From positions 124,001 to 188,000 of the IMG/VR virus record IMGVR_UViG_3300044638_006750: a stretch of 64,000 bases of DNA. The stretch is one strand, 5' to 3'. The number at the start of each line of letters is the position of its first letter. Positions within the stretch are counted from its first letter, which is position 1. The position numbers and the translations under genes are program-made. Below the pieces are notes generated by a model. That model searched no databases and was not told the origin of the DNA. It saw only the letters and a list, made by a program, of their open reading frames with translations. The DNA comes from a virus. Positions 3,484 to 29,117 of this stretch are shown piece after piece.

Positions 3484-3993
3484 ATGTCAACTCCGACACC
3501 TACTGCAACCCCTACTGGCTCGCCTCCTCCTACAGCAACTCCAACGAGAACAGCAACCAGAACGCCAAATAATACTCGTACTGGTACTGCTACTGCTACT
3601 TCTACGCCAACACGAACACCAACTAATACCAATACTTCTACTCCTACCCCTACTCCTACGTCTACTCAGACACCAACACCAACAACAACTCAAACTAGTA
3701 CTCCGACCAGAACTCAAACCAGAACACCTACAAAAACACCCACAGCGACCCCTACTAATACTTCTACTACGACTAAAACACCAACCAATACAAAAACCCC
3801 AACCGCTACAAAAACTTCAACTCCAACAAACACTGCTACCCCATCAAACACGCCAACTAATAGTAAAACTCCAACACAAACATCTACTAGTAATAAAGTT
3901 TATATATGTACTACTAGAACTAATACTCCAACAGGTACTCCAACTCCATCACCCACTAATACAAATACTCCATCGGTTACATCTACCAAGCCA
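3484..3993 (+). repeat. Thr/Pro-rich repeat block 1
   Basis: Encodes residues 1-170 as degenerate T-P-T-x units with interspersed Asn, Arg, Lys and Ser. The nucleotide repeat is imperfect because synonymous codons alternate. Confidence 0.8.
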
Positions 3994-5571
3994 CTTAATT
4001 CTAATGAATATTACCTTAGTGATGATCTAAGAAAAATATCTCATGAAAAAGAAACACTACCGACTATTACTGTTTATGTCGATAAAGTTATAGTTGAATG
4101 TTTATGTCTAGACAATCCATTACAAAAAAAGAAATTAGTAAAAGGAGCTTCATTATTTAAGGATGAAATCACTTCTGTTATTTGGTTGATTAGAGAATTT
4201 CAGAATATCCTTGGAACAACTGCAACAGTTTTCTTCTTAAGGGCATTGGATGAAGAAGCAGGAAAAACTGAAATCTATAAGATTGGTGACTCATATGTGC
4301 CAGGACCTATTACTCCTACACCCAAACCAACAGAACCATACGTTTTCATTATTTCAGAAACCCCGACGCCAACACCGAATATTAGTTCTAGTACTATAGT
4401 TTCCGAAGTGATTAGAATATGTCCTACAAATACTCCTACACCATCTATCACTCCTACACAAACACCAACTAATAGTCCAACACCAAGCGCTACTACTACG
4501 AAGACACCCACAAACACCCCAACCAATACAACGTCTAATACTCCAAGCCCTGGCCCCTTACCCATTAAATATTTTATTGGTCCAAGATTAGCTGAAGGCG
4601 AAACATCTCTACAATTCAAAGGTAAATTTGCGTATATGCCATCTGAAGAAGATAGCGGACTGGTTCAGTGGGTCGGTGATACTTTGGAAGGCACAGGTAA
4701 GCTATTAGCTTTAGACCTAAATGGCAATGTAACAACGGTAGAACTATCTAAAAAATATGGTGTTCTCAATGACAGAATTAATCTTCAACCCCCGGCACCT
4801 GATGTAGTAAGAGAAGAGATATTTGTTGAATTAAGATGGCCAGTTAAATGTCAACCAGTAGGTCAGCTTAAAATTCCTTTCAAGGTTGAAAGATATGTTC
4901 CTCCTCCTACACCTTCCCAATCAGTGAGTAGTAGTCCAACTAATACTCCAACACCAAGCATTACAAAAACATCAACACCATCTAACACCCCGTCGAATAC
5001 TGTTACAAAAAGCAATACTCCGACCAATAGTCCGAGTCTGTCTGCTTCTTGTTCATCTAAGCCTACATCAACACCAACACCAAGTGTTTCTATAACGCCC
5101 ACACAAACTTGTAGTAATACTCCCACACCAACACCTACAGAATCTAAATATTCTAATTGTGTTTTAGTTCCAGCGCCCTATCCTGACCCTATAGAATATG
5201 ATGAAGAAACACAAGAATTAATTATTTTAGGAGATGTTAGTTTTACTACTCCAACACCATCTCCGACAGTCACGGGGTCTGTAACACCAACTCCATCGGT
5301 TACTGTGTCTGCAACGCCGACCAATACTCCTACTCCATCAGTTACTAGAACATCTACTCCTTCAGTGACCCCGACCAGAACTCCAACCAATACTCCAACA
5401 AACACTCGGACACCAACTCCTACTAACACTAGTACCCCATCTAATACTTTGACCGTAACACCGACACAGACACCAACCGCCACAGTCACCTATACCAGAA
5501 CTCCGTCACAGACACCAACCAAAACACCGACAGGTACTCCAACAAGCACATATACTCCCACCAGACCATGA
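3484..5571 (+). CDS. mucin-like Thr/Pro-repeat protein with interspersed globular segments
   Basis: A 695-residue protein built from four Thr/Pro/Ser-rich low-complexity blocks (residues about 1-170, 276-358, 472-553 and 587-695) that separate two globular segments (171-275 and 359-471) and a short acidic linker (554-586). The repeat unit is loosely TPTxTPTNT. Codons for Thr and Pro vary freely between units, so the repeat is kept at protein level. Such extended Thr/Pro stalks in other proteins are rigid spacers and common O-glycosylation acceptors; no catalytic motif is visible. It follows the large structural-type gene by 5 bases, with AGGA in the end of that gene as ribosome binding site. 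A surface or tail-stalk role is inferred. Confidence 0.7.
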   Translation: MSTPTPTATPTGSPPPTATPTRTATRTPNNTRTGTATATSTPTRTPTNTNTSTPTPTPTSTQTPTPTTTQTSTPTRTQTRTPTKTPTATPTNTSTTTKTPTNTKTPTATKTSTPTNTATPSNTPTNSKTPTQTSTSNKVYICTTRTNTPTGTPTPSPTNTNTPSVTSTKPLNSNEYYLSDDLRKISHEKETLPTITVYVDKVIVECLCLDNPLQKKKLVKGASLFKDEITSVIWLIREFQNILGTTATVFFLRALDEEAGKTEIYKIGDSYVPGPITPTPKPTEPYVFIISETPTPTPNISSSTIVSEVIRICPTNTPTPSITPTQTPTNSPTPSATTTKTPTNTPTNTTSNTPSPGPLPIKYFIGPRLAEGETSLQFKGKFAYMPSEEDSGLVQWVGDTLEGTGKLLALDLNGNVTTVELSKKYGVLNDRINLQPPAPDVVREEIFVELRWPVKCQPVGQLKIPFKVERYVPPPTPSQSVSSSPTNTPTPSITKTSTPSNTPSNTVTKSNTPTNSPSLSASCSSKPTSTPTPSVSITPTQTCSNTPTPTPTESKYSNCVLVPAPYPDPIEYDEETQELIILGDVSFTTPTPSPTVTGSVTPTPSVTVSATPTNTPTPSVTRTSTPSVTPTRTPTNTPTNTRTPTPTNTSTPSNTLTVTPTQTPTATVTYTRTPSQTPTKTPTGTPTSTYTPTRP
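4309..4557 (+). repeat. Thr/Pro-rich repeat block 2
   Basis: Encodes residues 276-358. It is split by a short non-repeat piece containing Ile, Val and one Cys, then resumes as TPTNTPTxS units. Confidence 0.75.
4897..5142 (+). repeat. Thr/Pro-rich repeat block 3
   Basis: Encodes residues 472-553. It is more Ser-rich than the other blocks and contains two Cys residues (in SASCSS and QTCSNT). Confidence 0.75.
5242..5571 (+). repeat. Thr/Pro-rich repeat block 4
   Basis: Encodes the C-terminal residues 587-695 and runs to the stop codon, so the protein ends in the repeat rather than in a folded domain. Confidence 0.8.
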
Positions 5572-10756: not shown

Positions 10757-11508
10757 AGTAGCATCGCTTTCTTGAGTTGGTTTGCAAAGGTTTTAAAATC
10801 ATAATTTAAGCTAGTATTATTACTGTTCATTATATTTTTAGAATTAATAGTTTTTTGTTCTATTATATCTTTCATAAAAATTGCACTAGATCCAGATGAA
10901 ATGGCAACATAACTATCCAGAATATTTGAACATATTATTAAAGCGTATGTAGAAAAGTATTCAACTAATTTATTATAATCCATGTATTTGCTAAAGTCAA
11001 TCAATACTTCTATCTTGGACACCCCACCCATATCATATATAATATCTGTTAGTATTTTATCATGATTTTTATCTAATATAAGAATTTTATCATTTTTAAT
11101 TTTTGAGGTATTTTTGGTTTTTGGTATAGCAATTCTCAAATTTTTCTCAAAGATTTTATTGTTATTTGGATGTAAATTTATAACATTAAAAAGAGACAAT
11201 CTTTGCTTAATTAAAAATATGTCTTCTTTTTTCAGATAAGACATGTCATCGTGAATAAATAGTGTAAATTGTTTGATTCCGCTATTCGCATAATTATTTA
11301 CTAAATGAGGATTATGTATAAATACTCTGTAGTCATTTAATATAACATGTTTAGCCGTAAAATACTGTAGATCGCTTATTTGATTAGCTCTAATAATTTT
11401 ATCAGATAATTCAGACTCCATCAATAAATCAAAACAAGAATTATTGTTGATATATTGTATCAACGAATTATTTTCTGATCCATAAATTTTGTTATATGTA
11501 TTACTCAT
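10753..11508 (-). CDS. hypothetical protein, possible GT-B-like
   Basis: A 251-residue alpha/beta protein. Strand-like stretches KQFTLFIHDD, DKILILDKN, KIEVLIDF and ALIICSN are spaced like the two halves of a GT-B fold, but no donor-binding E-x7-E is seen. Overlaps of 8 and 4 bases join it to its neighbours. It may form part of a family with the similarly built genes at 8336-8971 and 11501-12379. Confidence 0.45.
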   Translation of the reverse strand: MSNTYNKIYGSENNSLIQYINNNSCFDLLMESELSDKIIRANQISDLQYFTAKHVILNDYRVFIHNPHLVNNYANSGIKQFTLFIHDDMSYLKKEDIFLIKQRLSLFNVINLHPNNNKIFEKNLRIAIPKTKNTSKIKNDKILILDKNHDKILTDIIYDMGGVSKIEVLIDFSKYMDYNKLVEYFSTYALIICSNILDSYVAISSGSSAIFMKDIIEQKTINSKNIMNSNNTSLNYDFKTFANQLKKAMLL

Positions 11509-12379
11509 AAAGACTACCGAGATCCAGTTTAGTTGACATAGTATAATGAATATTTGTGGCTTTATCTATACAGGACAGTTTTTTAAGCAATGAATCGTGG
11601 TCTATATGGTCATAGAAATTATTGCATTTTTGGAACTTAAATATTCGTTTGTTAGTAGATATAGTCTCAATATTATATCTCTTATCTAGGTTATATTTAC
11701 CTATAATTCTTTTATGGCTTTGTAGAGCATAGTAATACTCGATATCGGATATAAAAACAGCATTGATTTGCAATAAACAATCTATGCTATTAATAACAGA
11801 AATACGATAGTCGTCTGTAATGTTTCCACTAATACTGAGAATAACTTTTGTACTGCTTGGTGCGATTCCTATTTTTTTATGTAGATTTTCTATAAAGTCT
11901 AGAACCTTTTGTTCTTCTGTTGACTCTATGGCAAGAACTAGTATAGTATTTCTGAATCTTGCAGCTTCATAAAACACACAAACTAGATCTTCGATTATAT
12001 GGATATCTTGATTAAAGTTTAGAATAGCTCCAAATTTATAGTAATTATCAAATACGCGATTCAACTTAATTTTGTTTTGATTATATGAAACAATAAAATC
12101 TAGTTTTAGACTATCTATATGATTTTGATTCAATATATTTTGAGCTACGTCATTAGTGACACAAACTTTTGAAACAAGACTATATGCTTTAGGAAAATCT
12201 ATATATTCTATATATGGAATTCTAGGAAAAACAATATTTTTTGTATATTTTCTAGATATAAAAAGTTTATCATATAAAGTAAACTGCAAAATAGTTTTTT
12301 GAGAAGGATTAAAATGCTCTGCAATAGTCTCAGCTAACTTAGATTGTGATTCTTGTATTAATATAACATTATTATTCAT
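11501..12379 (-). CDS. hypothetical protein, GT-B-like
   Basis: A 292-residue protein. The centre (YKFGAILNFNQDIHIIEDLV then NTILVLAIE and TKVILSISG) matches the strand order of the C-terminal Rossmann half of GT4-type glycosyltransferases, and the protein lies directly downstream of a true GT4 gene. The usual E-G-F-G-x2-x3-E motif is absent, so it may be a diverged or non-catalytic partner. It overlaps the upstream fragment by 8 bases. Confidence 0.45.
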   Translation of the reverse strand: MNNNVILIQESQSKLAETIAEHFNPSQKTILQFTLYDKLFISRKYTKNIVFPRIPYIEYIDFPKAYSLVSKVCVTNDVAQNILNQNHIDSLKLDFIVSYNQNKIKLNRVFDNYYKFGAILNFNQDIHIIEDLVCVFYEAARFRNTILVLAIESTEEQKVLDFIENLHKKIGIAPSSTKVILSISGNITDDYRISVINSIDCLLQINAVFISDIEYYYALQSHKRIIGKYNLDKRYNIETISTNKRIFKFQKCNNFYDHIDHDSLLKKLSCIDKATNIHYTMSTKLDLGSLYE

Positions 12380-12665
12380 GACGAGGATCTTTGATGTGTG
12401 CGTATTCTATAAAATCATCATTGAGTTTTTGTTTATTACTATAAAAAGCTATTAATGTATTGTTATTCTTGATAACAGTATTAAAATATGCAATTGCGTC
12501 AGACCAAGAATAATTAGAAATTTTTTGATTACCCATTTCAAACCCTAGTGTCAATTTTTCTAACATGTTCAGTATAAAATAAGAATTAATATGATGGGCA
12601 CCATTAAGAAATTGACTACAGATTCTATCCAGCTTTTGGATATCTGACTCGCCCAAAGACTGCAC
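12372..12665 (-). CDS. C-terminal fragment cut off from the upstream glycosyltransferase
   Basis: A 97-residue open frame whose only start is a GTG at 12665 with no clear ribosome binding site. The frame is open for 35 more sense codons upstream (to 12770) and begins exactly after the TAA that ends the GT4 gene, in the same frame. Read through that TAA, the joined protein would continue FKW-x-KRLLELYQQ, the usual closing helix of a GT4 enzyme. I therefore read it as the tail of an interrupted 578-codon gene, translated only if reinitiation, readthrough or the GTG works. The tail itself is helical and of unknown role. Confidence 0.5.
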   Translation of the reverse strand: MQSLGESDIQKLDRICSQFLNGAHHINSYFILNMLEKLTLGFEMGNQKISNYSWSDAIAYFNTVIKNNNTLIAFYSNKQKLNDDFIEYAHIKDPRHE

Positions 12666-12770
12666 AATTTCTGGTGTTAGGTATGGTTTGGGTTGTATTT
12701 TTTTTATTTCGTCATACTTATTAGTATGGGCTGTTTGTTGTTTTTGTTGATATAGTTCTAAGAGTCGTTT

Positions 12771-14066
12771 TTACCATTTAAATATAATATGATTCCAGCT
12801 ATAATGATCTATACAGTTATTTCTTGTTGTAATTCTATTTCTATACTTAATGGGATAAGGAATATAAAGAAAATTATGCATAATTTCTACAAGACTATTA
12901 TTGTCTGGATAGGCCCTATAAGCCTGAGTTTCTAGCTCTTTAAATAATGTTGCGATTTGTACAGGGGTCGCGTTTAATTTTGAGACTATATCCTCCATGG
13001 CGCTATATGGGATCGTTGTGACAGGCACACCGCAAGCAGCAGCCTCTACTTGAGGCATACCGAATCCTTCGCATATTGAGTATTGTATGTACATATCAAA
13101 AGCATTATAAATATTTACCATCTGATCCAAGGTTACTCCGGATGTAACTGATGGCAAACTTGCGCTTTTATTTTTGCAATATATACAGTTTCTATGGGAT
13201 CCTGAATATACATCAGCAAATACCTTTTTGCAATTTTGACACAAATATGTCAACAATGTTCTGTTTAACATTCTGTTATCTTTAAGAAGGGTAGGTATAT
13301 CCCACCCCAAATAGTCGGGGTATCCGGTATGGAGATACAAGTACACCTTATCTGCAAAAGGAGAGTTCTCAGATGCGAGTTTGTCTATTAGCTGTCTAGT
13401 TGCTTTGATCAGCTCTGGGATTAGTTTCCTTTTTTGATTTCTCATCACAGAACCAAACACTATTTTATTTTCATCAATTTGTAGAGCTTTTTTAGCTATG
13501 CTACTATCTATTAGGCTATATGTGGTAGCATCTATCCCTGGTGATGCTGTATCTATATGATTTATATGTCCATTAGTTTGTAACTTTAAAACTTGTTCTG
13601 CCCAATCAGAATATGTAAAGATAGAATCAGCACCTAAATAAGTATCTAGCCAAGCTTCCTGCTGAGGATAAGAATCGACTGTTGGCATTACCATCCAGTG
13701 AAAACATTTTCTTAGAGGAGAGTATGCTTGATAGCAATTCATCCAATAGTCTCTTATATCTATAACCACATCTGGTTCAAAATCTATTAATGTTTTTTCA
13801 AACCTCCATCTACCAAAAGCATTTTCAGGACTAGCTGAATATTCTCCGAATCTTGGGTCTGTATTTTTAACACAGTTAGCATAATATCTCCATGTAATAT
13901 CTCGATCCCTAGGATCGTTTACCATACCATAGCAAGCCAGCTCGGCAACATGAAACGCCGGGTTCTTACTAAGTCTAGCAAGTAGTTCCTTGCCATACAC
14001 AGCATATCCAGTGCTCAAAAAACTGGCTTCATTGCACAATAAAATTTTTAATGGTTGTTGTGTCAT
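12771..14066 (-). CDS. GT4-family glycosyltransferase with zinc-ribbon insert, truncated by an in-frame TAA
   Basis: A 431-residue retaining GT-B glycosyltransferase. The N-terminal domain has FLSTGYAVYGKELL (donor-loop region); the C-terminal domain has GSVMRNQKRKL and the hallmark CEGFGMPQVEAAACG. Between them a four-Cys zinc ribbon (CQNCKK with CIYCKN about 20 residues later) is inserted, as in some phage GT4 proteins. I start at the ATG at 14066 (MTQQPLKILL), since an earlier ATG at 14108 would place a terminator hairpin inside the coding region. It ends YSWNHIIFKW then TAA, with coding potential continuing in frame to 12372. Confidence 0.8.
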   Translation of the reverse strand: MTQQPLKILLCNEASFLSTGYAVYGKELLARLSKNPAFHVAELACYGMVNDPRDRDITWRYYANCVKNTDPRFGEYSASPENAFGRWRFEKTLIDFEPDVVIDIRDYWMNCYQAYSPLRKCFHWMVMPTVDSYPQQEAWLDTYLGADSIFTYSDWAEQVLKLQTNGHINHIDTASPGIDATTYSLIDSSIAKKALQIDENKIVFGSVMRNQKRKLIPELIKATRQLIDKLASENSPFADKVYLYLHTGYPDYLGWDIPTLLKDNRMLNRTLLTYLCQNCKKVFADVYSGSHRNCIYCKNKSASLPSVTSGVTLDQMVNIYNAFDMYIQYSICEGFGMPQVEAAACGVPVTTIPYSAMEDIVSKLNATPVQIATLFKELETQAYRAYPDNNSLVEIMHNFLYIPYPIKYRNRITTRNNCIDHYSWNHIIFKW

Positions 14067-14072
14067 TATACG

Positions 14073-14100
14073 AAAAAGGGCTATGTTATTAGCATAGCCC
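14073..14100 (-). terminator. Rho-independent terminator after ssb
   Basis: On the minus strand GGGCTATG, a 7-base loop and CATAGCCC form an 8-bp stem followed by TTTTT. It lies 30 bases after the ssb stop and just before the glycosyltransferase start, so it would end the ssb transcript. Confidence 0.8.
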
Positions 14101-14129
14101 TGTTTCATTCCACTTCTTATGACGATATC

Positions 14130-14572: not shown

Positions 14573-16189
14573 TCAAGCCATCGGCAGATAACATTTTTCA
14601 ACGATTAGGTCGTTCTTCTTCGATGACTTCGTACCCTTAAAAATAAGAATATTACCTTCAAATAATTGGTTACGATATAAAGATAGCTGTTCGGTAAAGA
14701 ATATCAATGAATCTACATATCCTGTACTGTCAGAGATGCTTACAAAAGCCATCTCATTACCTTTATTCTTTCCGTTCTTAATTTTAATCACATTCATTCC
14801 ATCTATTTCTCCAGCCATAATAATAGATTTTCTTTGAGAGTCCTTGAACTCTTTACATGTTGTATTAGTCATACTAATATCATAAGAATCTACTTTAGAA
14901 TATGTAATATTAATGCCCAATAAAGCATTCTCATTATCGCATACCCACTCTATTTTATCTTCTAGTGAATATGGAGGTTTAATTAGAGATGTTATCAAGC
15001 CCAACAAAATATTCCTACGATTCTGTGTAATCTTTGGTTTTTTTACCAAAATATTCATCAGTTGAACAATATTAAATTGTTTGATATCTAGAGATAATAC
15101 ATATTCTATTTCTTTGGCTGTTAACTCGCTAGCTATATCATAATCAAATAACATCTCAGTTCTACTCTTCTTAATATAGCTAAAGGCTCCACTACAAATC
15201 ATAGCTTTTGCGGCGGTAGAGTTTATTTTCAATAGTAGCTTAAATAATATTTCTACCCACGACATATTGTATACATCTAAATTTTTAGATATGTCTACAA
15301 TCTTGTTATAAACAGAATCACCAACACCTTTTATGTCTGTTAGACCAAAATAAATCTTATTATGATGTATCACAAAAAACTGATTAAGTAATCTATAGTC
15401 TGGAACGCAAATTTCTATATCCATATCAGTTGCGTTTTTAACTAGTTCTTTAATTTCTTGTTGAGGATCTATTTTATCTTTGGCATACTTAAGGTAGGAC
15501 GCAAAGAATATCTTGGGGAAGTGGGCTTTGCTGAAAGCTGATAAATATGCATTTATAGCATAGCTAACTGCATGAGATTTATTAAAAGAGTATCTTTGAC
15601 TTTTTTCAATCCAGCTAAAAATCTGCTCTGCTTCGCTTTCATTAACTAAACCAGTAGCTTTGCACCCTTGAATAAAAATAATCTTAAGTTTTGCCATTTC
15701 TTCTGGCTTTTTCTTGCCAATGGCTTTTCTTAACTGGTCTGCTTCCTGTAAATCGAAACCAGCTATTTTTTGAGCTATTTCCATCGCCTGTTCTTGATAA
15801 ACCATTTCTCCAAAAGTGGTTTTGAGAATAGGCTCTAGTGCAGGATTAAAGTAATCTATAGACTCTTCGCCATTCTTTTTGTCTATAAAATGATTACTAA
15901 CCGTTTTCCCATCCCTAATAGCTTCCAGACACCCAGGTCGCATAATACTAATGAGGGCGGAAAGTTCTTCAATATTAGACGGTTTAAGCTTTCTCGCCAT
16001 GCTTTGTCCAAGACGAGACTCTAACTGAAAACAACCCTTTGTGTTTCCAGAAGAAAGCATGTCCCATGTTCTTTTACAGTCAAAATTTATAGAGTTCATA
16101 TCTATAGAAAAATCTATCTTTGGCATAGCGCCTTCGGATTTCTCTATGATTGGAAATCTACAACCACAATCAAAAGTATAATATTCCAT
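14573..16189 (-). CDS. dnaE: DNA polymerase III alpha subunit, C-terminal half (split gene)
   Basis: A 538-residue protein matching the fingers to OB-fold part of DnaE-type polymerases. CFQLESRLGQSMARKL and ISIMRPG (residues about 53-87) open the fingers, GEMVYQEQ and ADQLRKAIGKKK continue it, YSFNKSHAVSYA follows, a helix-hairpin-helix-like GVGDS lies near 290, and an OB domain (residues about 440-538, IIMAGEIDGM onward) closes it. The three catalytic Asp residues are not here but in the separate N-terminal half at 17066-18943. The first 20 residues contain FDCGCRFPI, absent from cellular DnaE and possibly a metal or docking site. The gene starts 1 base after the exonuclease stop. Confidence 0.9.
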   Translation of the reverse strand: MEYYTFDCGCRFPIIEKSEGAMPKIDFSIDMNSINFDCKRTWDMLSSGNTKGCFQLESRLGQSMARKLKPSNIEELSALISIMRPGCLEAIRDGKTVSNHFIDKKNGEESIDYFNPALEPILKTTFGEMVYQEQAMEIAQKIAGFDLQEADQLRKAIGKKKPEEMAKLKIIFIQGCKATGLVNESEAEQIFSWIEKSQRYSFNKSHAVSYAINAYLSAFSKAHFPKIFFASYLKYAKDKIDPQQEIKELVKNATDMDIEICVPDYRLLNQFFVIHHNKIYFGLTDIKGVGDSVYNKIVDISKNLDVYNMSWVEILFKLLLKINSTAAKAMICSGAFSYIKKSRTEMLFDYDIASELTAKEIEYVLSLDIKQFNIVQLMNILVKKPKITQNRRNILLGLITSLIKPPYSLEDKIEWVCDNENALLGINITYSKVDSYDISMTNTTCKEFKDSQRKSIIMAGEIDGMNVIKIKNGKNKGNEMAFVSISDSTGYVDSLIFFTEQLSLYRNQLFEGNILIFKGTKSSKKNDLIVEKCYLPMA

Positions 16190-16190
16190 C

Positions 16191-16895
16191 CTAAGTCATC
16201 AATGGTTTAGAAAATGAGTCCTTGAATTTAACTTTACTTGCCAGTTTTCTGTGAAGTTTCAAAAATCTAATCAAAATATCTGCTGTATCTTTTACGTCTT
16301 TAAGTGCATCGTGAGCACCATCTTTGCTAATACCTAAATAATCTCTAAGATTATCTAATGTATAGCTCTTTAGTTCTTTTGATCCTTCGAACCAATAAAA
16401 AACTAAATTCATAATATCTATTACATCTCTCGGATAAAATAAAGACGAATTACCTTCTTTATTAACATTCTTATATTTTACGCTTAGTTTTTGAACTATA
16501 GGCAAATCAAACCTATTAATATTATAGCCAGCCGCTATGGGAGCAGTAAAGCACGATTTTTTCTCTGAACGAATATGATACATATCTAAGTAGGATGTAA
16601 ACATTTTCCATCCAGCATCCTGCTTCGGATATGATTTCCATTGTGAGAGGATATCGTCTTTTGATGATCCTCTCACCTTGGCATGAAAATCCAAAACGTC
16701 TGAGTCTTCGTAGGAATAGCTGCTATTTTGTTCCAAAGCCTCTGGCTTGAGATTTATATTAAACTCGGAGTCTGGTATGACTTCCAGTTTAAATGGATCT
16801 ACAATAATAGCGGCTATTTGAACAGGACTACAAACATTGGGGTCTTTACCGTCAGTTTCTAAATCGAACACACAAATTTTTTGATTATTAGCCAT
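16191..16895 (-). CDS. DnaQ-like 3'-5' proofreading exonuclease
   Basis: A 234-residue DEDDh exonuclease. Exo I is FDLETDG (residues about 10-16), Exo II YNINRFD (about 123), and Exo III HDALKDVKDTA (about 194-204), with the His that defines the DEDDh class. It would remove mismatched 3' ends made by the split polymerase, like the epsilon subunit. Its gene lies between the two polymerase halves and overlaps the small gene before it by 8 bases, so all are probably made from one message. Confidence 0.88.
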   Translation of the reverse strand: MANNQKICVFDLETDGKDPNVCSPVQIAAIIVDPFKLEVIPDSEFNINLKPEALEQNSSYSYEDSDVLDFHAKVRGSSKDDILSQWKSYPKQDAGWKMFTSYLDMYHIRSEKKSCFTAPIAAGYNINRFDLPIVQKLSVKYKNVNKEGNSSLFYPRDVIDIMNLVFYWFEGSKELKSYTLDNLRDYLGISKDGAHDALKDVKDTADILIRFLKLHRKLASKVKFKDSFSKPLMT

Positions 16896-17073
16896 TAATT
16901 ACCACTGCTGTTCCTGGGGCAAAAAAAGTTTTGTTAGCCGCATTGGACACGTCCTCTGCATTAATAGATTTGCAACAGCTAACCTTAATCGTATCAATTT
17001 TTCTATACTGAGTGTCAGAACCATGAACTTTAAATTCTTGTCCAACATTTAGCTCAGAAAATAGTTTATTCAT
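16888..17073 (-). CDS. hypothetical small protein between the polymerase halves
   Basis: A 61-residue protein (MNKLFSELNVGQEFKV onward) of beta-rich look, with a GTAVVING end. I choose the ATG at 17073, preceded by a strong GGAGGT at 5 bases; an ATG 12 bases upstream has none. Its ribosome binding site and start lie within the last codons of the polymerase N-terminal half, so the two are coupled. The same small fold is often seen in phages as an unknown protein; function unknown. Confidence 0.6.
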   Translation of the reverse strand: MNKLFSELNVGQEFKVHGSDTQYRKIDTIKVSCCKSINAEDVSNAANKTFFAPGTAVVING

Positions 17074-18943
17074 AACTACCTCCATTTTTCAAAAGTGTAC
17101 TTACAGTCATAACCTTATCTAACATTGCAACGCCTAAGATATCGAACTTGATAATACCTAAAGTTTCTAAATCTTGCATTTCCATGCCAGCTATTTGTTG
17201 CTTATTTTTGGTATCATAAACCATAGGACATATATTCCCTAGTTTTTGATCAGAAATAACAATGCCAGCCGCATGTTTGGATTGGTTAACTTTAGTTCCT
17301 TCTAGACGAATGGCTTGCTCAAAACGCATCGCTAGGGGACCAGACAGCACACCATCCTCATTAATATAACACCAATTCTTGAGTTTGTCAACATTATTTT
17401 CTAGAGACCACTGTATAATCGAGGCTTCTCCATATTCTTCTTTCATTTCTTGTAGTTCGTCTGCAATCTTAGCCTCGTCGGGTATATTTTTTGTGATAGT
17501 GTTCATTTCATCAAAAGTTATATCTCCGTATACTCTTAAAACATCCTTTAAAGCCCCTCGACCCTTTAGGGTGTTAAAAGTAATCATTTGGGACACATTT
17601 TCTGTACCATACCTATTTTTGATATAACCAATAACATCTTCTCTCTTATTAATTGGTACGTCAACGTCAATATCTGGCATAGAGATTCTATCCTTAGTAT
17701 TTCTTCCTGCATTATAAAATCTTTCAAAGATTAGATTATATTTTAGTGGATCAATACTAGTAATACCAATCAAATAGGAAACCAGACATCCGGCAGCTGA
17801 ACCTCGACCGGGACCGGGCAACCAGCCACTATCTCGCACAAAATTGACGATATCAGACACTATTAAAAAGTAGCTAGACAGACCAGCCCCCTGTAAAACA
17901 GACAGTTCGTATTTGATCCTTTCTGCATACATGTCTTGTTGTTCTTTGCTAATATTATTGCTAATTTTTTCTCTCCACCCATTTCTACACAACTGTCTCA
18001 GAAATTCATCAGGATCATTATTGATGCATTCGAATGGAGGCAGCATTGGTTTATGAGAGATATCGTAATCTTCACACATACTATCTATAAGGTTGGTATT
18101 ATCAACTTCTTCTTGTGTATGAATTTCATTCATCTCTTCTGGAGACAGAATATAATAATTATCCGATACAAAAAATGTTGACATTGGTACAGACTCATTA
18201 TTTACTATCTTTCGATTAATGTCTGTAAATGTTGTTTTTAGATTATTACAAAGAAGTATTCTCTGATCTATCGCGTCTTCTTTTTCTGAATAGTGAGCAT
18301 CGGGTGTGCAGATCACTTTGGTATTAGTCAGTTTACCCAATTCACGAATACAGTCTGTCAATATTTTTTGAGCGGGGTTATGGTTTTGATCCATAAGTTG
18401 TGCTTCAAGAAAAAAATTGTCATTGCCAAATGCATTCTTGAGTATGCCTATTTTTTCTATGCCTATATTTTTCCAGTCTGGAGAAATCTTATCATCTTCT
18501 AAAATATGGTTAGCAATATATGATCCCAGATGACCACAGAAACCAATCATATTTCCATCTAAAAATTCTGACAACTTATCTATACTAAGTCTTGGCTTAC
18601 GATAGAAGTAGTCTTCTCTATTTGATTCGGATATAATTCGTATTAATTTATGCCAACCGGCCAAATTTTTTGCTAAAACTAAGAAATGACTAGGAGATTC
18701 TTCTTTATTTTTTATAGAAGGATCCGAGTCTGAAATATATAGTTCGCATCCCAATATGGGTTTGATACCAGACTTTTTTAAGGTGGTATGGAACTGAACT
18801 GCTCCGGCTATGTTGCCATGATCAGTTAATGCACAAGATCCTACCCCTATTTTTTTACATCTTTCTGATATTTGTGATGGTTTACTTAATCCATCCAATA
18901 AACTATAGTGAGAATGAACGTGCAGTGGAATATAATTTTTCAT
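17066..18943 (-). CDS. dnaE: DNA polymerase III alpha subunit, N-terminal half with PHP domain (split gene)
   Basis: A 625-residue protein with the PHP domain (LHVHSHYSLLDG at the N-terminus, LTDHGN near 40, PDAHYS near 215) and the palm. Catalytic signatures are PGPGRGSAAG (about 376-385), PDIDVD (about 423-428, the first two catalytic Asp) and IIKFDILG near the C-terminus (third Asp). The chain ends about 20 residues later, where cellular DnaE continues into the fingers, which are encoded at 14573-16189. PHP metal-binding His residues are retained. The halves must assemble to give activity. It overlaps the nuclease gene upstream by 4 bases. Confidence 0.9.
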   Translation of the reverse strand: MKNYIPLHVHSHYSLLDGLSKPSQISERCKKIGVGSCALTDHGNIAGAVQFHTTLKKSGIKPILGCELYISDSDPSIKNKEESPSHFLVLAKNLAGWHKLIRIISESNREDYFYRKPRLSIDKLSEFLDGNMIGFCGHLGSYIANHILEDDKISPDWKNIGIEKIGILKNAFGNDNFFLEAQLMDQNHNPAQKILTDCIRELGKLTNTKVICTPDAHYSEKEDAIDQRILLCNNLKTTFTDINRKIVNNESVPMSTFFVSDNYYILSPEEMNEIHTQEEVDNTNLIDSMCEDYDISHKPMLPPFECINNDPDEFLRQLCRNGWREKISNNISKEQQDMYAERIKYELSVLQGAGLSSYFLIVSDIVNFVRDSGWLPGPGRGSAAGCLVSYLIGITSIDPLKYNLIFERFYNAGRNTKDRISMPDIDVDVPINKREDVIGYIKNRYGTENVSQMITFNTLKGRGALKDVLRVYGDITFDEMNTITKNIPDEAKIADELQEMKEEYGEASIIQWSLENNVDKLKNWCYINEDGVLSGPLAMRFEQAIRLEGTKVNQSKHAAGIVISDQKLGNICPMVYDTKNKQQIAGMEMQDLETLGIIKFDILGVAMLDKVMTVSTLLKNGGSYE

Positions 18944-19938
18944 TCAACGCTTCCTGGTGCCTTGTACTTTCCAACAGTATACCCTGGAACTGTGTATTCG
19001 TCAACTACAGCATCTATGCCTTTTAGCTCGATATCGTGCTTAACCTGTTCACACTTTGTCATAAAGGTATCTTTTTGACACAACTGATTATCTCTATATT
19101 CGATGATTGGCAAAACATTAGAGTCTTGAAAAGTGCTTTTCCCATAATGACAAAGCTTACTACACATCCAGCTCTTATTCAATTTAGGTCTTTTTGTTTT
19201 CTTTATAATTTCAAATTTTTCTCTTAGCATTGATTCTGTTTTGGGCATATCGGATTTATCAAAATGAACGCTAAAAGCTCCACCGTCGTTAATAAAAAAT
19301 ATAGTAACCATTACATGTTCAATATCTGGATATAGATTTTGCACAGCATAGTGGTATATCCTGAGTTGAGGATCATCTTCTAATTTTTCTTGTGTTTTTT
19401 CTTGTCCCGTGGCCCAGTTAAGTCTGCGACCTGTTTTCCAGTCTACAATTTCCAAAGTATTATCATTAACTTTTGTAATTAAGTCTATTGTTCCCTTTAT
19501 TCCTAAATTACCCTCAAGCACACCTTGAGATGTATTATACTTATATTTGGCCCAAGGTTTTTGTATTACTATATCAAAATGTTGTTCTGGACATACAATT
19601 TCTCTATTCCTGGGATCAAACATCCCATTATTATATAAGATTGCTTTATCAACCCATGTTCTACAGTCTTTGCGATCCTTGTCTGTCCATTTATGATGAT
19701 GAAACCTACTAGTGTAATAATCATATACTTGATTACTAATATCATCTAAATTATAATTAGAAATATCTACATTTCCAATAGTATCGTCTTCAAATACTTG
19801 GTTTTTATTCTGCTGATTTTGTTTGATCATAGCAAGTATTTCTAGTACCTTATGTACTATTGTACCTTTATCAGCTTTTTGATTACTTGGTCCACGATAA
19901 CCCAAAACATACTCAAAAAAATATTGCTGCTCACACAT
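18940..19938 (-). CDS. RecB/Cas4-like PD-(D/E)XK exonuclease
   Basis: A 332-residue product from the first ATG. Nuclease motifs are GTIVHKVLE (motif I His), GTIDLI and EIVDWKTG (Asp, Glu/Asp and Lys) and QLRIYHYA. Cys residues near the N-terminus (CEQQYF) and near 258-265 (CSKLC) are placed as in nucleases with an iron-sulfur cluster. The family normally has an S-x-S/Y-x3-C lead-in, and here the codons upstream of ATG read ITYFRSSSYNAHS in frame. The natural N-terminus therefore probably starts at the ATA at 19980, which overlaps the stop of the kinase gene as ATAA. A role in recombination-dependent replication or DNA degradation is inferred. Confidence 0.8.
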   Translation of the reverse strand: MCEQQYFFEYVLGYRGPSNQKADKGTIVHKVLEILAMIKQNQQNKNQVFEDDTIGNVDISNYNLDDISNQVYDYYTSRFHHHKWTDKDRKDCRTWVDKAILYNNGMFDPRNREIVCPEQHFDIVIQKPWAKYKYNTSQGVLEGNLGIKGTIDLITKVNDNTLEIVDWKTGRRLNWATGQEKTQEKLEDDPQLRIYHYAVQNLYPDIEHVMVTIFFINDGGAFSVHFDKSDMPKTESMLREKFEIIKKTKRPKLNKSWMCSKLCHYGKSTFQDSNVLPIIEYRDNQLCQKDTFMTKCEQVKHDIELKGIDAVVDEYTVPGYTVGKYKAPGSVE

Positions 19939-28375: not shown

Positions 28376-29078
28376 AATTATCTAATCTTGCTAAAATAGA
28401 AGCTATTATAGGATTCCTAACTATGTCCGATGATTCTAGTTTGGCAAAGCCTATGCCTTCTAGACCATCTAGAGCATGAATAAGGTCTATAAAGCCGCCT
28501 TGCAAGTGTCTCATTAGATCTGACTGTCCTATGTCGCCAGTCATAACTAATTTACTATTTTGTCCAACTCTAGTTAATAACATTTTTAATTGTTCGTATG
28601 AAGCATTCTGGCACTCGTCTGCTACTATAAAACAATTATGAAAATTTCTACCTCTCATTAATCCCAGAGGAACAACTTCTATTCTGTTATTAGTCTTCAA
28701 AGAAACGTATTGTGCAGGAGATATGAAGTAGTTTATCTCATCTAGAATGGGCAATAAGTACGGATGAAGTTTTTCTTCAGCAGTGCCTGGGAGATAACCT
28801 ATCTTTTCACCTGCTTCTATCACTGGTCTAGTAATAACTATACGTTTGACTTTTTCATCTAATAAATATTCTAAAGCCATTCCTATAGCAATGTGTGTTT
28901 TGCCGCTTCCAGCCAATCCTTGACAAAAGGTTACTGTATTTTCGGCAATTGTTCTGATATACTCTTGTTGATTTTTACTCCTGGGTTTTAATCTATTTCT
29001 ATATAACTGTGGGGCTGGCTGTAAATCGTTTGTTGCGTCTACAACCCTCTTCTTCTTATTGTTATTTTTTTTTCTCAA
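28356..29078 (-). CDS. phoH: PhoH-like P-loop ATPase
   Basis: A 240-residue PhoH-family protein. Walker A is GLAGSGKTH (about 54-62), then RIVITRPVIEAGEKIGYLPG (the family's hallmark) and Walker B FIVADECQNAS, with VMTGDIGQSDL as sensor. PhoH proteins are widespread in phages and are thought to be RNA- or nucleotide-related ATPases; their exact role is unsettled. A basic KKKRVV tail sits at the N-terminus. A possible promoter element lies 62 bases before the start. Confidence 0.92.
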   Translation of the reverse strand: MRKKNNNKKKRVVDATNDLQPAPQLYRNRLKPRSKNQQEYIRTIAENTVTFCQGLAGSGKTHIAIGMALEYLLDEKVKRIVITRPVIEAGEKIGYLPGTAEEKLHPYLLPILDEINYFISPAQYVSLKTNNRIEVVPLGLMRGRNFHNCFIVADECQNASYEQLKMLLTRVGQNSKLVMTGDIGQSDLMRHLQGGFIDLIHALDGLEGIGFAKLESSDIVRNPIIASILARLDNYEGQSS

Positions 29079-29117
29079 AGTATACCCTTTACTATAGAGT
29101 GTTACGATGTATCGATA

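What the first reader, a model, noticed from the sequence alone, without database searches (positions are those of the whole stretch)
12372..12773. GT4 glycosyltransferase split by a single TAA with an open tail
After the TAA at 12771-12773 the same frame stays open for 35 codons without any start and then for 97 more. The amino acids across the stop (FKW, stop, KRLLELYQQ) fit the usual closing helix of GT4 enzymes. One base change, TTA to TAA, would explain it. Readthrough, a nonsense mutation or a sequencing error are the options.
Basis: seen in the sequence. Interest (0 to 1): 0.65.

Follow-up and report, generated by a model that had tools for sequence, protein, structure and literature searches.

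The report
Phage glycosyltransferase with fresh nonsense stop
A sugar-attaching enzyme gene of a large uncultured phage carries one in-frame stop where a near-identical sister sequence and dozens of related phages keep an amino acid, so it is an ordinary recent loss-of-function change (or a sequence error), not a new kind of gene.

Summary
On the minus strand a GT4/GT-B glycosyltransferase ORF (14108→12774, 445 codons) stops at TAA 12773-12771. The same frame then runs open for 132 more codons to TAA TAA at 12374-12369. The tail is real coding sequence and part of the same ancestral protein: 74 of 74 complete homologues from other phage contigs are single ORFs (534-569 aa aligned part) that run through this point.

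A near-identical sister contig (IMGVR_UViG_3300046777_002220, 4 differences in 12,577 bp) has GAA (Glu) there and encodes an intact 578-aa protein. The stop replaces a commonly conserved Glu (45 of 63), directly after a Trp invariant in 63 of 63. It cuts the closing GT-B helix (residues 438-458, AlphaFold pLDDT 92) and removes a C-terminal helical domain that matches no Pfam or PHROG family. No comparable lesion was found elsewhere in the window. TAA ends most genes here, and no suppressor tRNA was found.

Best reading: a recent E446* nonsense change. Linked differences nearby favour a real haplotype, but a local assembly error is not excluded without reads. Readthrough and a split gene are unlikely. 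Low interest.

The parts
12774..14108 (-). GT4 glycosyltransferase core (residues 1-445), as truncated in this record
   Evidence: ORF; Pfam Glycos_transf_1 E=3e-10; GT-B fold in PDB search, best 3oy2 E=1.5e-18
12771..12773 (-). Premature TAA in place of conserved Glu446 (GAA in sister contig and in L022)
   Evidence: 65 homologous ORFs align across it
12375..12770 (-). Open tail: rest of the closing helix plus C-terminal mostly helical domain (residues 447-578 of the intact form)
   Evidence: continuous with the core in sister and homologues; coding score; no Pfam or PHROG match
12369..12374 (-). Ancestral double stop TAA TAA, overlapping the start of the next gene (ATG at 12379)
12735..12797 (-). 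Closing C-terminal helix, residues 438-458, cut by the stop after eight residues
   Evidence: AlphaFold2 model of the sister protein, mean pLDDT 91.7
13176..13241 (-). Zinc-ribbon-like four-Cys insert (C290, C293, C308, C311), all at least 90% conserved
13044..13070 (-). E-x7-E type GT4 motif (E347...E355), intact upstream of the stop
   Evidence: invariant in 63 sequences
12782..12782 (-). Linked difference from sister: TTT (Phe443) here, GTT (Val) in sister
12663..12663 (-).
11501..12379 (-). Next gene of the collinear block; its start overlaps the end of the tail frame by 8 nt
   Evidence: a 48% identical homologue sits at the same place in L022

Best explanation
The record carries a recent nonsense allele (E446*) of a 578-aa phage GT4 glycosyltransferase. 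A single G-to-T change turned GAA into TAA. Shown: the intact form exists in a near-identical contig and in all complete homologues, the stop cuts the closing GT-B helix, and it removes a conserved C-terminal domain. Inferred: the 445-aa product keeps the donor-site motif but is probably misfolded or inactive, and loss of translation over 391 nt may lower expression of the overlapping downstream gene. Also inferred: the stop sits on a real, slightly divergent haplotype in the phage population rather than arising in assembly. That the stop is derived and the tail belongs to the gene is about 97% certain; that it is a biological allele rather than an error is about 60%.
For: Sister contig: 4 substitutions in 12,577 bp and an intact 578-aa ORF with GAA at the site. 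74 of 74 complete homologues run through, 534-569 aa. Trp445 63/63; Glu446 45/63 plus Asp 7/63. 65 homologous ORFs cross the stop, and no comparable lesion appears elsewhere in the window. The 391-nt gap left by the stop is the largest in a 41-gene block whose gaps are mostly -47 to +8 nt; with the tail it becomes an 8-nt overlap, as in homologues. Three of the four differences from the sister lie within 120 bp, P about 0.001 if independent, which fits a linked haplotype better than one stray base error.
Against: No reads were available. A cluster of three substitutions could also come from a thinly covered or chimeric join in this assembly. No second contig with the TAA form was found. The tail shows no further decay, as expected whether the change is very recent or an error.
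Confidence: 0.6

Rival explanations
1. Consensus or assembly error: the phage gene is intact and the TAA is an artefact of this 232,683-base virus record.
For: The only near-identical contig has GAA. It is the single lesion found. Differences cluster around it. The frame downstream is undecayed.
Against: It is a substitution, not the indel typical of long-read error. Three linked substitutions must be explained, and good coverage normally removes stray errors (general knowledge).
Confidence: 0.35
2. Programmed or suppressor-dependent readthrough: TAA is read as an amino acid and a 578-aa protein is made.
For: The frame beyond is open and conserved.
Against: Relatives have a sense codon, so no stop is conserved. 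TAA is the commonest gene-ending codon in the window (43 of 73 ORFs with a stop). ARAGORN reported no suppressor tRNA in the record. The tail itself ends in TAA TAA.
Confidence: 0.03
3. Two working genes: a shortened GT4 plus a separate small protein restarted at GTG 12665.
For: The window has GTG at codon 482 where the sister has GTA.
Against: No ribosome-binding-like sequence precedes it (CCTAACACCAGAAATTGTG). The restart would leave out residues 447-481. No complete homologue is split.
Confidence: 0.02

Closest known systems
GT4 family GT-B glycosyltransferases (Pfam PF00534 Glycos_transf_1; PHROG 2170)
   Same: GT-B fold, E-x7-E type motif, closing C-terminal helix; 63 of 63 homologues match PF00534; PHROG 2170 E=1.6e-20
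   Different: Carries a four-Cys zinc-ribbon-like insert and a C-terminal domain of about 120 aa with no Pfam or PHROG match; in this record it is truncated
Putative glycosyltransferase of Paramecium bursaria Chlorella virus NY2A (PDB 3oy2)
   Same: Closest solved fold (E=1.5e-18, TM-score on target 0.82)
   Different: 15% identity, 392 residues, shorter than this protein
Synechococcus phage S-CBS4 and S-EIVl 'glycosyl transferase group I'
   Same: Only matches among deposited phages (24% identity)
   Different: Only 380 and 422 aa, without the tail domain

Membership tests
GT4 (PF00534) glycosyltransferase | Match to Glycos_transf_1 above the gathering score | tested here: met
   40.3 bits against cut-off 26.4; 63 of 63 homologues match at E <= 0.01
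GT4 (PF00534) glycosyltransferase | GT-B double Rossmann fold with closing helix | tested here: met
   Model pLDDT 91.7 and GT-B PDB matches for the intact sister form; the truncated form lacks most of the closing helix
GT4 (PF00534) glycosyltransferase | Retaining glycosyl transfer from an activated sugar | not testable with these tools
   No assay; donor and acceptor unknown
Nonsense allele / pseudogene | Intact orthologues exist and the stop is derived | tested here: met
Nonsense allele / pseudogene | Stop is present in the organism and not an error | not testable with these tools
   Needs reads; one record each way
Stop-codon readthrough gene | Stop conserved among homologues | tested here: not met
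   0 of 74 complete homologues stop there
Recoded phage (TAA as sense) | TAA avoided as terminator and a suppressor tRNA present | tested here: not met
   43 ORFs end in TAA; no suppressor tRNA reported

The most novel reading that the evidence does not exclude
The TAA/GAA difference is a maintained on/off or length polymorphism of the phage glycosyltransferase, selected in the population (for example by host receptor or defence), with the short form having its own role.
Probability: 0.04. Interest if true: 0.4.

Novelty: new member of a known kind. Interest (0 to 1): 0.12.

Why it matters
Little by itself: single nonsense alleles and consensus errors are routine in metagenomic phage records. 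The useful by-product is that the gene should be annotated as one 578-aa enzyme. Its C-terminal domain, present in at least 74 complete homologues of a widespread group of phages, has no Pfam or PHROG family yet.

Tried and rejected
A DNA search of deposited phages found nothing. Single-protein scans for the core, the tail and the downstream gene found only the sister contig. The first pattern scan had a misplaced N and found nothing; corrected. A recoded stop, suppressor tRNA and internal restart were rejected. A separate downstream gene was rejected because all complete homologues are fused and the downstream start abuts the end of the long frame. Other apparent stops in homologue alignments were antisense shadow ORFs or lay at a gene start (16198-16201). 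Ribonucleotide reductase relatives gave no further near-identical contig with which to measure strain differences (best 91%). Paper searches gave nothing relevant.

Full report
What is there. The window is bases 124001-188000 of an IMG/VR virus record of 232,683 bases. On the minus strand an ORF runs from ATG 14108 to a TAA at 12773-12771. The same frame continues without a stop for 132 codons to TAA TAA. The first 35 of those codons hold no ATG, GTG or TTG, and the remaining 97 begin with GTG at 12665. The tail is coding by composition: its codon score is as high as that of the core, the other five frames are negative, and an open run of this length has a chance of about 4e-5.

Sister sequence. 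A scan of viral contigs found one near-identical contig, IMGVR_UViG_3300046777_002220 (12,577 bases, all of it aligning to window 24844-12268). It differs by four substitutions: at 19105, 12782, 12773 and 12663. The one at 12773 makes the codon GAA (Glu), so the sister encodes an uninterrupted 578-aa protein. Three of the four differences fall within 120 bp, which independent placement would give with P about 0.001.

Homologues. An alignment-based scan reported 504 viral relatives and kept 80, and a second scan gave a 46%-identity relative on a contig binned as an alphaproteobacterial MAG. Seventy-four have a complete ORF of the expected architecture. Their aligned parts are 534-569 aa and all run through the site; none ends there. 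In a 63-sequence alignment Trp445 is invariant and position 446 is Glu in 45 and Asp in 7. The closest outgroup, L022 (69% identity), has GAA. A comparison of 2,279 relatives' ORFs with the window found 65 that cross the stop at 12773. No other sense-strand lesion turned up beyond one hit near a gene start at 16198-16201; the rest are antisense shadows. That check only covers the parts of the window that the fetched relatives align to.

Gene layout. Genes here are tightly packed: the 41-gene block has gaps mostly between -47 and +8 nt. The gap after the premature stop, 391 nt, is the largest. With the tail included it becomes an 8-nt overlap with the next gene, and in the homologues inspected the next gene starts at -4 to +10 nt from the end of the long frame.

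Structure. AlphaFold2 on the sister protein with 63 sequences gave mean pLDDT 91.7 and pTM 0.90. A helix spans residues 438-458, so the stop removes 13 of its 21 residues and then a mostly helical C-terminal domain (about residues 479-573). The core matches GT-B glycosyltransferases, best the chlorovirus NY2A protein 3oy2. The tail has no Pfam or PHROG match. In GT-B enzymes the C-terminal helix packs back on the N-terminal domain (general knowledge), so the 445-aa product is expected to be unstable or inactive; this is inference.

Mechanism and rivals. TAA is the most used terminator in the window (43 of 73) and ARAGORN reported no suppressor tRNA in the record, so recoding and readthrough are unlikely. 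The GTG at 12665 has no ribosome-binding-like sequence before it. What remains is a single G-to-T nonsense change that is either real in the population or an error in this record. The linked differences tilt towards a real haplotype, but reads are needed. I put 0.60 on a real nonsense allele, 0.35 on an assembly or sequence error, and 0.05 on readthrough or a split gene.

Verdict. An ordinary nonsense allele or consensus error in a common phage glycosyltransferase.

Noticed in passing
L075 (IMGVR_UViG_3300016472_001021), insert between locus positions about 4005 and 5206: This homologue of the same glycosyltransferase has a roughly 400-aa in-frame insertion immediately before the catalytic EG(L/F)G motif that looks like an intein with LAGLIDADG-like motifs (starts CLGKDEQI, ends GATFQ before Cys). 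The call rests on reading the sequence; no intein model was run.
   Followed up: partly
window 14573-18943 (-): DNA polymerase III alpha subunit appears to be encoded in two separate ORFs (17066-18943 and 14573-16189) with an exonuclease-like gene between them; the exonuclease / C-terminal half / SSB / GT4 order recurs in most homologous loci.
   Followed up: partly
L110:9291-9643 (-) (record position about 217291-217643): The phage record encodes its own tmRNA with tag GANQLALAA.
   Followed up: no
L103:9011-9085 (-) (record position about 29011-29085): tRNA-like gene with a four-base anticodon call (gaga), identity undetermined, near a cluster of eight ordinary tRNAs.
   Followed up: no
window 3484-5571 (+): 695-aa protein made largely of TPT/SPT repeats.
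   Followed up: no
window 12375-12770 (-): C-terminal domain shared by at least 74 phage GT4 enzymes (ends in a conserved (E/D)DFI.YA..K motif) without any Pfam or PHROG family.
   Followed up: partly
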